The notes beneath the pieces were generated by a model, which worked only from the letters and a program-made list of their open reading frames with translations, was not told the origin of the DNA and did no database searches. The position numbers and the translations under genes were made by a program. A stretch of DNA of 64,000 bases from Bacteroides sp. (GTDB taxonomy: Bacteria > Bacteroidota > Bacteroidia > Bacteroidales > Bacteroidaceae), in contig SUXY01000003.1 of NCBI GenBank assembly GCA_015060705.1, positions 1 through 64,000 of the forward strand. Direction: 5' to 3'. Shown here one piece after another: positions 33,085 to 42,200 of the stretch. The first letter of the stretch is position 1, and the number at the start of each line of letters is the position of its first letter.

Positions 33085-34203
33085 ATGAAACGAAAATACT
33101 ACATATTGGGAACGCTTGCCTTGCTCTGCTTGCTGGGTACGGGTTATTATGCTTGGACGCTGTATGATGCGCATTGCAAGCAAGTTGCTGAATGGAACGA
33201 AGGAGCGAAAGCAGCTTTCGAAGAAGCTTTGTGGATGGAAGTGAATAAAAGGGCGGAGGTGCCATTTTATTCTACTTCTAGTGGAGACGATGGGATGACT
33301 ACTTTTAAAGAAAGAGTTCCAGATTCTGTTTTTGTAACTTCACTTTTGGGACGTAGGGGCTATCGAATAGAACGCAATAAATATAATCATAGTTTAGTAA
33401 AAGATACTCGAAAAAGAGTACGTTTAACTACCTTATTTGCAGGACATCCTTTGTCTACAGATACATTGCTTATTCATTGGGATAGTCTTCTTTTTGCGAA
33501 TCAAATCCCCATAAAGGGTCAAGTCCGTTATATCTATACGGATATGGAATTGCAAAATGATACAATCTATTCTATCGTGTCTAAACGATTATCCAATTTG
33601 GATAGTTTGACGGTGAAATATTTAGGATTTCGCTGTGAACATGAATTGGCTGCCTTTATTTCATATCCGCATTGGATGACTACTTCGTTTAAAGAAAATG
33701 GTTTTATATTATTGCTTCCTTGGATTCTATTGATACTTCTATCTGTTTATTATCCAAGGTTAGAAGTAATGGTAAAACGAAAGTTTACACATGAGATAGT
33801 GATAGAAAAGACAATTGAAATTGAAAAAGAAGTTATTGTAGAAAAGAAGATCCATTTGGCAGATGTGGCGATAGATAAAGCTCAAATGTTTGAACTTCCT
33901 GATGGAACGATATTTGATGCATTTGAATGTACATTGGAAAAAGATGGCTTGAAGCAGCGTTTGCAGCCGCAATCCGTATCGCTTTTGAAACTTTTTTTGA
34001 TAGAGAACAATCATCAGGTTACATCCGATAGCATCTGTCTGAAACTTTGGGGTGATGTCTCTCATTCAGAACGTCTATATTCTGCCATTCGACGTCTTAG
34101 GAATGATTTGAAAAGGGTAAAATCGGAGCTTTTTATCGAATCATCATATGGAATCTATGAACTAAAATCTCCCATTTCATCGCATAAATCTGACCAAACC
34201 TGA
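33085..34203 (+). CDS. Membrane-spanning regulator: N-terminal TM, extracytoplasmic domain, second TM, coiled coil, C-terminal OmpR/PhoB-like wHTH
   Basis: TM1 YYILGTLALLCLLGTGYYAW; TM2 GFILLLPWILLILLSVYY; charged coiled coil; LQPQSVSLLKLFLIENNHQVTSDSICLKLWGDVSHSERLYSAIRRLRNDLK matches OmpR_C. Confidence 0.75.
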   Translation: MKRKYYILGTLALLCLLGTGYYAWTLYDAHCKQVAEWNEGAKAAFEEALWMEVNKRAEVPFYSTSSGDDGMTTFKERVPDSVFVTSLLGRRGYRIERNKYNHSLVKDTRKRVRLTTLFAGHPLSTDTLLIHWDSLLFANQIPIKGQVRYIYTDMELQNDTIYSIVSKRLSNLDSLTVKYLGFRCEHELAAFISYPHWMTTSFKENGFILLLPWILLILLSVYYPRLEVMVKRKFTHEIVIEKTIEIEKEVIVEKKIHLADVAIDKAQMFELPDGTIFDAFECTLEKDGLKQRLQPQSVSLLKLFLIENNHQVTSDSICLKLWGDVSHSERLYSAIRRLRNDLKRVKSELFIESSYGIYELKSPISSHKSDQT

Positions 34204-34241
34204 CCAAACCTGACAAAATTGGTTTTGGTCAGTATTGGTCA
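34191..34241 (+). promoter_or_regulatory. Candidate operator: 10-bp-phased repeats TGACCAAACC x2, TGACAAAATT, then inverted GGTTTTGGTCA, TATTGGTCA
   Basis: Read directly: TGACCAAACC TGACCAAACC TGACAAAATT GGTTTTGGTC AGTATTGGTC A; lies upstream of a TAnnTTTG -7 element. Confidence 0.7.
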
Positions 34242-34275
34242 GATAAAAGATAGTTCTCATTCAATTTTTAATCTA

Positions 34276-34283
34276 TACTTTTG
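34276..34283 (+). promoter_or_regulatory. Candidate -7 element TACTTTTG of the NVEALA/propeller operon
   Basis: TAnnTTTG match; no clear -33 TTTG, consistent with activator dependence. Confidence 0.45.
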
Positions 34284-34342: not shown

Positions 34343-34585
34343 ATGCAAAAGATTTTTCTATTTTTGTTTGTAGGGGTTTTAGGTGTTTTAATAAGCCAAC
34401 AGATGCAAGAAACTCCAATCGTTGATGATGTATTGTTGGAGAATGTCGAGGCTTTGGCTAATCTTGAAAATAAGTTGCCAACTTATTGTGAAGATGTAGG
34501 CTCTGTGGTGTGTCCTATTACAGGAAAGGGAACAGGAGCCGTTTATGAAGGTTATAGTTTAGAACCGGATGAAGAAAATTATTAG
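34343..34585 (+). CDS. NVEALA-family secreted peptide 1
   Basis: MQKIFLFLFVGVLGVLISQQMQETPIVDDVLLENVEALANLENKLPTYCEDVGSVVCPITGKG...; start at 34343 rather than ORF start 34295. Confidence 0.8.
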   Translation: MQKIFLFLFVGVLGVLISQQMQETPIVDDVLLENVEALANLENKLPTYCEDVGSVVCPITGKGTGAVYEGYSLEPDEENY

Positions 34586-35633
34586 TCTGTCGGTACTTTT
34601 AGTGGTCGTGGCTCTCTATGCTTTTACCAAGACTTCTCCCAGAGCAGAAGATTCTGAAATCACTTTTCCCGTGACAGAAGAACTGCAAGGTCGGGTGATA
34701 CCGATAGATTCCGTCTTCTTCCGTTATCCCTACCGTCTCGAAGTTCGAGGCGATAGGGTGGTAATAGAAGATTTGCATGGTCCCGACCATTTCTATCATC
34801 TCTTTACCTTTCCCGAATTCCGTTATCTCCATTCTTTCGGACAACGGGGCGAGGGACCGGAAGAGATGCAGACGGTGGACGATTTTCGTTGGGATGGGCA
34901 GACCCTTTGGGCATTGGACAACATCAAGTCAGAACTAGTTCGTTGGGAACTGAATGGCAGCCGTGACAAGATGGTTCGGACGGAGCGCATCAAGTTGGAT
35001 AAGGCTACCTTCCGTGCTTTGGACATCGTGCCTTTTCAGAACAATTCTTTCCTGATTCCTAACTATTCGGGTGATACCCGCTTTTGTCAAGTGGATAGAA
35101 ACGGGAAGCTTATCAAGAAGTGGGGTGTGATACCGACCGATAGAAAGAAAGACTTGCAGAAGTATCCATACGCTTTTGGTTATGGATGGCGTAGTTTCAT
35201 CGATTATTCACCGAAAACCGGAATATTGGTAGCTGCCACCCAATTCGGTGAAGTTTTGGAGATATGGAATGTGAAGAAGAATACCCACAAGGTAATGAAA
35301 GGCAAGTTGGGTGAACCCGAATTTGAAATTCTTCCGGAGTATGCTATTCCTGCTGGAGCAGTTGGACATAATGACATTCAAGTAACCGACCGTGCCATTT
35401 ATGTCATTTATCGGGGTATTTCGATAAAGGAAGAGATTTTGGCTCGTCAGAAAGGTAAACCATTGCTTACAGGAGGCAACACCGTCCGTGTCTTCAGTTT
35501 GGAAGGTGAACCTTTGAAAGAATACAAACTCGACCATTCGGTCAGTGGTATTTGGGTAGATGAACAAGCCGGAAAGATGTGGGCTTTGGACGTAAATAGT
35601 GATGAACCGTTGGTGGAATATTCTATAAAGTAA
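34569..35633 (+). CDS. 6-bladed beta-propeller (BF3164/TolB-like) protein 1
   Basis: Overlaps the NVEALA1 stop by 17 nt; FGQRGEGPEEMQTVDDFRWDGQTLWALDN-type propeller motifs. Confidence 0.75.
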   Translation: MKKIISLSVLLVVVALYAFTKTSPRAEDSEITFPVTEELQGRVIPIDSVFFRYPYRLEVRGDRVVIEDLHGPDHFYHLFTFPEFRYLHSFGQRGEGPEEMQTVDDFRWDGQTLWALDNIKSELVRWELNGSRDKMVRTERIKLDKATFRALDIVPFQNNSFLIPNYSGDTRFCQVDRNGKLIKKWGVIPTDRKKDLQKYPYAFGYGWRSFIDYSPKTGILVAATQFGEVLEIWNVKKNTHKVMKGKLGEPEFEILPEYAIPAGAVGHNDIQVTDRAIYVIYRGISIKEEILARQKGKPLLTGGNTVRVFSLEGEPLKEYKLDHSVSGIWVDEQAGKMWALDVNSDEPLVEYSIK

Positions 35634-41285: not shown

Positions 41286-42200
41286 ATGGTGGCGATAGGA
41301 ATTCTTTGGAAGAAATACGGCAAGCGGTTGGAGCGCTGGGCGGACTTTCTGCTGACCGTGGTGGCATGCGGTGGCTTGGGCTTTCTGCTCTGGATGCTGC
41401 TGCAGGTGACAACTCTGGTGAGTTTCCGCATCCCCACCGAATCGATGCAGCCCACATTGATTCCCGGCGACTATATCCTGGTGGAGAAGTGGACGATGGG
41501 CGGACGGATATTCGATTTGCCGGATGCCGCCGAAGGGAAGGAGGTGGAAATCCGTCGCTTGCCTGGTTTCGGCAAGGTGGAGCGGAACGATGTGCTGGTG
41601 TTCAACTTTCCGCACCATCACCGTTGGGACAGCATCGGTATGGACCTGATGGTGTATTATGTGAAGCGCTGCATCGGCTTGCCGGGCGATACGGTTTCCA
41701 TCCGCAACGGCTATTATCGGGTGGCAGGTGTGGCGGATACATTGGGGTATGTCCCTTCGCAGCGGAGGCTGGAACGGTTGCTGGCTACGGACAGGCTCAA
41801 GGATGCGGGCATCGCCTACCGGAGTTTTCCGGAAGACAGCGTGAGGGACTGGACCATCGGTGATTTCGGCCCGTTGTTCATTCCATCTGAGGGTAGCCGT
41901 GTCCTTCTGACAGAGGGGGAGGTTCCGCTCTACCGTCGGGCTATCGAATGGGAGCAGAAGAAACGGCTGGATGTGAAGGACGGCCGGGTGCTGCTGGGCG
42001 ACAGTGCGGTGCATGAATATGTGTTCCGCAAGAATTACTACTTTGTGGGTGGCGACAATGTGCTCTATTCGCAGGACTCCCGTTATTGGGGCTTGCTGCC
42101 GGAAGAATACATTGTGGGCAGAGCCGTAAGAATTTGGAAGTCCGTGGACAGGATCACGGACGGTATGCGTTGGGACAGAGTGATGAAAAAGATAGAATGA
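41286..42200 (+). CDS. lepB: Signal peptidase I (S26 family)
   Basis: FRIPTESMQPTLIPGDYILVEK (Ser box) and YYVKRCIGLPGDTVSIRNG (Lys box), Y(F)VGGDN..SQDSRYWG box. Confidence 0.88.
   Translation: MVAIGILWKKYGKRLERWADFLLTVVACGGLGFLLWMLLQVTTLVSFRIPTESMQPTLIPGDYILVEKWTMGGRIFDLPDAAEGKEVEIRRLPGFGKVERNDVLVFNFPHHHRWDSIGMDLMVYYVKRCIGLPGDTVSIRNGYYRVAGVADTLGYVPSQRRLERLLATDRLKDAGIAYRSFPEDSVRDWTIGDFGPLFIPSEGSRVLLTEGEVPLYRRAIEWEQKKRLDVKDGRVLLGDSAVHEYVFRKNYYFVGGDNVLYSQDSRYWGLLPEEYIVGRAVRIWKSVDRITDGMRWDRVMKKIE

What the first reader, a model, noticed from the sequence alone, without database searches (positions are those of the whole stretch)
34191..34283. Helically phased operator-like array upstream of the first NVEALA gene, overlapping the end of the regulator gene
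Three direct half-sites with exact 10-bp period (TGACCAAACC, TGACCAAACC, TGACAAAATT) are followed by two inverted half-sites (GGTTTTGGTCA, TATTGGTCA). The regulator's own stop codon (TGA 34201-34203) lies inside the array. About 35 nt further is a TAnnTTTG -7 element without an obvious -33. OmpR/PhoB-type wHTH proteins typically bind tandem direct repeats with ~10-11 bp spacing, so this is a natural target for the adjacent wHTH protein.
Basis: partly seen in the sequence, partly recalled or inferred. Interest (0 to 1): 0.8.

Follow-up and report, generated by a model that had tools for sequence, protein, structure and literature searches.

The report
Private operator array of membrane regulator
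The phased repeats are very probably the binding site of the neighbouring membrane-anchored regulator, and the same layout (repeats every 10-11 bases, ending a fixed distance from the promoter, with a different repeat word at most loci) recurs in front of comparable secreted-peptide gene clusters across a genus of gut bacteria, so many separate gene switches can be read from DNA sequence alone.

Summary
The period-10 repeat scores 26, against a maximum of 20 in 2000 shuffles, and is the only period-10 site of that strength in the 64 kb.

The two 'inverted' half-sites (34221-34242) are the conserved core; the three 'direct' ones are an extra mirror-image set. Orthologous loci keep the core with the last half-site starting 38-39 bp upstream of a TAnnTTTG-like -7 element.

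Across the genus, regulator-adjacent 'class-1' NVEALA genes have upstream regions enriched for 10/11 and 20-22 bp periodicity (26 loci); internal NVEALA genes lack it (66 loci). The last half-site starts 37-39 bp before the -7 in 15 of 20 loci although the word differs (GGTCAG, GTGAGG, CTAAGG, TAAAGG). Almost every such gene sits beside a TM-periplasm-TM-wHTH gene. In one genome two paralogous promoters differ at 4 of 160 bp; two of these are the same C-to-A change in both half-sites.

Best reading: an OmpR/PhoB-type operator through which a membrane-integrated one-component regulator controls, most likely activates, its own NVEALA operon. Binding and activation are inferred, not shown.

The parts
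33085..34203 (+). Membrane-integrated one-component regulator, 372 aa: TM1, periplasmic domain, TM2 (about 206-224), linker, C-terminal OmpR/PhoB-type wHTH (about 267-361)
   Evidence: Pfam Trans_reg_C E 3.5e-05, below its gathering cut-off; wHTH part of the model pLDDT 72-84 by block matching solved OmpR/PhoB-type domains; hydropathy; orthologues
34171..34182 (+). CCCATTTCATCG element, conserved at nucleotide level across different reading frames and past the stop codon in orthologues; function unknown
34190..34220 (+). Mirror (upstream) half-sites CTGACCAAAC, CTGACCAAACC, TGACAAAATT, 10-bp period; the first two pair with the downstream pair as a palindrome
   Evidence: present as 2+2 in L004, L024, L027, L028, absent in L005, L014, L006
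34221..34242 (-). Core operator: promoter-proximal pair GGTTTTGGTCAG TATTGGTCAG (minus strand CTGACCAATA CTGACCAAAA), 10-bp direct repeat
   Evidence: last GGTCAG starts 39 bp upstream of the -7; 38-39 bp in orthologues and 37-39 bp in 15 of 20 class-1 loci
34276..34283 (+). -7 promoter element TACTTTTG (TAnnTTTG); no clear -33
   Evidence: consensus from PMC7366714
34343..34585 (+). First (class-1) NVEALA gene, C-terminal CxxxGxxxCP type
   Evidence: Pfam NVEALA E 6.9e-07; class by protein sequence
34569..35633 (+). TolB-like 6-bladed propeller protein, overlapping the NVEALA gene (same operon, inferred)
   Evidence: Pfam E 1.2e-63

Best explanation
The array is the operator of the regulator encoded immediately upstream. 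That protein is anchored in the inner membrane by two helices, has a periplasmic sensing domain, and presents a C-terminal OmpR/PhoB-type winged helix to the cytoplasm. Monomers bind head-to-tail on half-sites spaced 10 bp apart on one face of the helix. The last half-site core starts 39 bp upstream of the -7 element, about -50 relative to the start site, so bound protein sits just upstream of RNA polymerase at a promoter whose -33 element is weak, and most likely activates it. The regulon is local: the NVEALA / 6-bladed-propeller operon next door. Paralogous systems use the same geometry with different half-site words, which insulates them from one another. The mirror-image half-sites upstream probably bind a second dimer, for cooperative binding or repression. 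Shown here: anatomy, conservation, periodicity, fixed spacing, regulator adjacency, concerted half-site divergence. Inferred: binding, activation, insulation, periplasmic signal.
For: Array far above chance and unique at its period in 64 kb; word essentially private to this locus in the genome. Orthologous loci keep 10-bp-phased half-sites at 38-39 bp from the -7 even where the number and orientation of upstream copies vary. Upstream regions of 26 class-1 NVEALA genes are enriched at 10 (8/26), 11 (9/26) and 22 bp (6/26) with about 0.9 expected, while 66 internal NVEALA regions are not (10 bp 3/66, 11 bp 1/66, about 2.1 expected). 17 loci whose regulators are outside the window's orthologue group still peak at 11 and 22 bp (7/17, 6/17). 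Last half-site to -7 spacing is 37-39 bp in 15 of 20 loci measured, with many words; an automatic -7 choice also gives a period-10/11 excess at -40..-31 in class 1 only. All class-1 loci except one degraded and one cut at a contig end have an adjacent wHTH gene, co-directional or divergent; 9 of 10 tested hit Trans_reg_C. Paralogous promoters L005 and L014 in one genome: 4 differences in 160 bp, two being the same C-to-A change in both half-sites, with wHTH domains 46% identical. OmpR/PhoB proteins bind tandem direct repeats, and PhoP binds 3 and 4 motifs at 11 bp (PMC4832192).
Against: No binding or expression data. The wHTH Pfam score of the window protein is below the gathering cut-off. The window group uses 10 bp while many relatives use 11 bp. 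Sign of regulation is deduced from position only. Class-1 assignment and the words were partly chosen by eye after seeing some of the arrays. Loci such as L046 and L035 show no convincing 10-11 bp array, and L100, L099, L033, L123 and L149 do not fit the 37-39 bp rule as measured.
Confidence: 0.84

Rival explanations
1. RNA element: the palindrome is the 3' hairpin (terminator or stabiliser) of the regulator mRNA, and the repeats are just hairpin arms.
For: RNA fold -30.8 kcal/mol, z -6.4; L004 and L024 have a T-run right after the palindrome.
Against: No T-run in the window. The second arm is missing in L005, L014, L006 and in the L007 group, where phased half-sites persist. A hairpin explains neither the 10-11 bp period nor the constant distance to the downstream -7, nor arrays beside divergent regulators.
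Confidence: 0.08
2. Operator, but for repression: the regulator holds the promoter off and lets go on a signal.
For: The divergent-gene layout at many loci allows repression of the regulator's own promoter; the mirror half-sites could support looping.
Against: The core ends upstream of the -33 position rather than over the -7 or start site; the window promoter lacks a -33 and so would need help.
Confidence: 0.2
3. Operator for some other, unlinked regulator; the adjacent gene is coincidental.
For: No binding data exist for the adjacent protein.
Against: Array and wHTH gene co-occur at nearly all class-1 loci and words diverge along with the local regulator.
Confidence: 0.04
4. Neutral short tandem repeat produced by replication slippage.
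For: Two copies are exact.
Against: Diverged but phase-keeping copies in orthologues, fixed promoter distance, absence at internal NVEALA genes.
Confidence: 0.02

Closest known systems
OmpR/PhoB-family tandem operators (PhoB box; M. tuberculosis PhoP 7-bp motif + 4-bp spacer, PMC4832192)
   Same: wHTH fold, head-to-tail half-sites every 10-11 bp, more than two copies possible, placed just upstream of the core promoter
   Different: No receiver domain or partner kinase; each locus has its own word; the window array adds a mirror-image set, unlike the purely direct repeats reported for OmpR/PhoB response regulators
ToxR/CadC-type membrane-integrated one-component regulators
   Same: OmpR-type wHTH, transmembrane anchor and periplasmic domain in a single protein
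   Different: Opposite polarity: wHTH is C-terminal after a second TM helix, sensor domain between two TM helices; no similarity seen outside the wHTH
NVEALA protein family (Pfam PF14055) clusters of Bacteroidales
   Same: The regulated genes are members
   Different: No paper with the word NVEALA in the library searched; I found no description of the regulator pairing or of the operator

Membership tests
OmpR/PhoB-type wHTH DNA-binding domain | Winged helix of the Trans_reg_C / PhoB effector fold | tested here: met
   Pfam E 3.5e-05 (sub-threshold for the window protein; 8 of the 9 relatives with a match pass the cut-off); Foldseek hits SaeR 4qwq E 6.4e-04, PhoB 1gxq, ToxR 8b4b, CadC 5ju7
OmpR/PhoB-type operator | Direct repeats with 10-11 bp period upstream of the core promoter | tested here: met
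OmpR/PhoB-type operator | Bound by the wHTH protein | not testable with these tools
   Needs EMSA or footprinting
Two-component response regulator | N-terminal receiver domain | tested here: not met
   Pfam finds only Trans_reg_C in the window protein and no receiver domain in ten relatives
ToxR/CadC membrane regulators | wHTH plus TM plus periplasmic domain in one protein | tested here: met
   Two hydrophobic segments flanking a 150-200 aa domain in 21 of 23 family members, positive charge before the first and after the last; TM1 of the window protein falls below the threshold used
ToxR/CadC membrane regulators | N-terminal cytoplasmic wHTH, single TM, C-terminal periplasmic domain | tested here: not met
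   wHTH is C-terminal, after the second TM
Intrinsic terminator | Stem-loop followed directly by a U-run | tested here: not met
   Stem present but followed by ATAAAAG
NVEALA (PF14055) | Match above the curated cut-off | tested here: met
   34343 gene 29.3 bits vs 27

The most novel reading that the evidence does not exclude
A genus-wide set of orthogonal, self-contained signalling modules: each membrane wHTH regulator senses, in the periplasm, the secreted product of its own class-1 NVEALA gene and activates that gene through a private operator word in a fixed promoter architecture. This would be an autoinducing peptide circuit with many insulated channels.
Probability: 0.17. Interest if true: 0.82.

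Novelty: new variant of a known kind. Interest (0 to 1): 0.62.

Why it matters
NVEALA genes were found in 34 of 61 genomes of this genus of gut bacteria, and the paper search found no literature on them. The finding gives the clusters a regulator, a predicted operator and a promoter geometry, all readable from sequence. It offers a natural set of paired wHTH domains and half-site words for learning how OmpR/PhoB-type specificity changes, including one near-isogenic pair of promoters differing in both half-sites by the same base. It also makes the question of what induces NVEALA operons directly testable with reporters.

Tried and rejected
Alignment A1 could not seed a scan of genome contigs, so a narrower one was used (6 named relatives from gut metagenomes). 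Search for regulator homologues across the order gave almost none outside the genus. AlphaFold of the full protein is poor outside the wHTH (mean pLDDT 47), so nothing can be said about the periplasmic fold. RNA-hairpin and slippage readings were considered and put aside, see rivals. The C-terminal peptide encoded by the first half-site (SDQT) is not conserved among orthologues, so the repeats are not explained by protein constraint. Paper searches for NVEALA, for membrane-bound wHTH regulators of Bacteroides and for related terms returned nothing relevant.

Full report
OBSERVATION. The array is exactly as described. Written by half-site it reads CTGACCAAAC (34190-34199), CTGACCAAACC (34200-34210), TGACAAAATT (34211-34220), GGTTTTGGTCAG (34221-34232), TATTGGTCAG (34233-34242), then 33 bp to the -7 element TACTTTTG (34276-34283). 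It is a nested palindrome as well as a phased array. A weighted period-10 score of 26 compares with a maximum of 20 in 2000 dinucleotide shuffles of the 240 bp upstream of the NVEALA gene; no shuffle of 1000 reached 26 at any period from 5 to 25, and no other place in the window reaches it at period 10. Across the 2.95-Mb genome, CTGACCN4CTGACC with up to one mismatch occurs 9 times; three of these, including two of the three perfect ones, are in this array.

THE REGULATOR. The gene 33085-34203 encodes a 372-aa protein whose only Pfam match is Trans_reg_C (E 3.5e-05, slightly below the curated cut-off). The AlphaFold model is poor except for residues about 267-361 (pLDDT 72-84 by block), and that part matches solved OmpR/PhoB-type domains: SaeR, ArlR, PhoB, ToxR, CadC. 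Hydropathy of 23 relatives shows one hydrophobic segment at the N-terminus and one near residues 170-240, with positive charge before the first and after the second, in 21 of 23; the window protein passes the threshold only for the second. The topology is therefore TM, periplasmic domain, TM, cytoplasmic wHTH: functionally ToxR-like but with the opposite polarity.

ORTHOLOGUES. Homologues are nearly confined to one genus: 19 of 61 genomes, against 2 of 393 across the order including the window's own genome. The genus is probably Phocaeicola, because one single-contig member has exactly 5,163,189 bases, the size I remember for P. vulgatus ATCC 8482; this is memory, not a test. Named close relatives are mostly ruminant-gut metagenome assemblies. 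Downstream of each orthologue: L004, L024, L027 and L028 have a 2+2 palindrome (for example CTGACCATTA CTGACCAACA AGCTTGGTCAG TAATGGTCAG); L003 has four direct and two inverted half-sites with a shifted word (CTAACC, CTGACC, CTAACG, CTAACC); L005, L014 and L006 keep only the two 'inverted' ones; L007, L026, L029 and L030 have two direct ones (CTGACATGAA CTGACATTTA). In the nine loci with inverted half-sites plus the degraded locus L011, the last half-site starts 38-39 bp upstream of a TAnnTTT -7.

GENERALITY. NVEALA genes (PF14055) were found in 34 of 61 genomes of the genus. Their products fall into two sorts: class 1, with a C-terminal CxGxGxxxC-type signature, and class 2, with a GYNVYxSQ-type leader and variable ends. 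The split was made from the protein sequences, but partly by hand and after some arrays had been seen. In the 240 bp upstream of 26 class-1 genes, strong tandem periodicity is over-represented at 10 bp (8/26), 11 bp (9/26), 20 bp (5/26) and 22 bp (6/26), with about 0.9 expected at each; 7 bp gives 5/26 and the remaining periods 0-4. In 66 de-duplicated class-2 regions the counts are 3/66 at 10 bp and 1/66 at 11 bp, with about 2.1 expected. Leaving out all orthologues of the window's regulator, 17 loci still peak at 11 (7/17) and 22 bp (6/17). Examples: six repeats GTGAGGTTTCC / ATAAGGTTTCG / GCAAGATAAAT / ATAAGGCTTTC / GTAAGGTAAAT / GTGAGGTATTC at exactly 11 bp (L141); five ATAAACG-type repeats (L100); CTAAGG repeats at another locus of the window's own genome (L114, contig C68); TCTAAAGGTA repeats at 10 bp at a third (L144, C34). 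All but one degraded and one contig-end class-1 locus have a wHTH gene beside them, either ending about 100-170 bp upstream in the same direction or divergently transcribed; 9 of 10 tested carry Trans_reg_C. The layout is also seen, more weakly and by eye, in another family of the order (L206, L210, L214).

FIXED SPACING. For 20 loci where a word and a -7 could be set, the distance from the start of the last half-site to the -7 is 37, 38 or 39 bp in 15; the others are 26, 27, 44, 48 and 62. Words and some -7s were chosen by eye. With an automatic -7 choice (16 class-1, 14 class-2 loci), period-10 and period-11 identity is in excess at -40 to -31 upstream of the -7 in class 1 (0.19 and 0.16) and close to zero in class 2 (0.06 and 0.03). 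Since the -7 element lies about 7 bp before the start site (PMC7366714), the last half-site sits near -50.

A NATURAL EXPERIMENT. Genome G009 holds two paralogous loci, L005 and L014, where the array is followed directly by the propeller gene. From the first half-site onward 160 bp differ at four positions only; two of them are the same C-to-A change at the same position of both half-sites, turning GGTCAG/GGTCAG into GGTAAG/GGTAAG. Their regulators are 55% identical in the N-terminal part and 46% in the wHTH. Both half-sites changing together while the promoter between and after them stayed the same is what co-divergence of a regulator and its site would leave.

MECHANISM. OmpR/PhoB proteins bind direct repeats head-to-tail; M. 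tuberculosis PhoP binds 7-bp motifs with a strict 4-bp spacer and binds three or four motifs in a row more tightly (PMC4832192). The most likely mechanism here is the same contact geometry made by a membrane-anchored one-component protein, stimulating polymerase at a promoter without a good -33. Activation rather than repression is an inference from position. The mirror half-sites could seat a second dimer facing the regulator gene; in L004 and L024 the same palindrome is followed by a T-run and may double as the regulator's terminator. The periplasmic signal is unknown; a product of the NVEALA operon is a reasonable guess and nothing more.

LIMITS. Loci share ancestry, so counts are not independent. 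Several class-1 genes were truncated in the fetched stretch and assigned by resemblance. No wet data exist here.

VERDICT. An operator of known type serving a little-known regulator family, with an unusual combination: fixed architecture, private words, membrane-bound wHTH of reversed polarity. Interest 0.62.

Noticed in passing
window 34171-34182; L003, L004, L005, L006, L011, L014, L024, L071, L082, L139: A 12-bp string CCCATTYCATCG lies between regulator and array. It is conserved in orthologues in different reading frames or beyond the stop codon, found upstream of 8/26 class-1 NVEALA genes and 0/78 others, and occurs 21 times in the genome against 2 for the reversed control. At divergent loci it is reverse-complemented, so it follows the regulator's sense strand.
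   Followed up: partly
L168, L170, L172, L175, L180, L181 (own genome, contigs C31, C36, C37, C60, C98, C105): A dispersed repeat of about 120 bp containing the same CCCATTTCATCG string, often with an upstream CTCGATGAAA arm and followed by a TTTATATTT stretch. Relation to the NVEALA element unknown.
   Followed up: no
window 41286-42200; L211: A type I signal peptidase (Peptidase_S26) lies at the end of the NVEALA cluster, and another S26-like gene is divergent from the regulator on contig C34 (by eye); possibly a dedicated processing enzyme for NVEALA peptides.
   Followed up: no
L015, L018, L019, L043 (G034, G009): Short ORFs of about 75-130 aa made of the wHTH domain alone, without the membrane part, related to the window regulator's C-terminus.
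   Followed up: no
L031 (G068 C4); L011 (G005 C16): L031: regulator orthologue split by a frameshift into sensor and wHTH halves. L011: the regulator is degraded, yet the operator-like palindrome and the -7 remain.
   Followed up: no
L213 (own genome C107:8357-9289): Fourth regulator of this family in the window's genome, with no NVEALA gene beside it.
   Followed up: no
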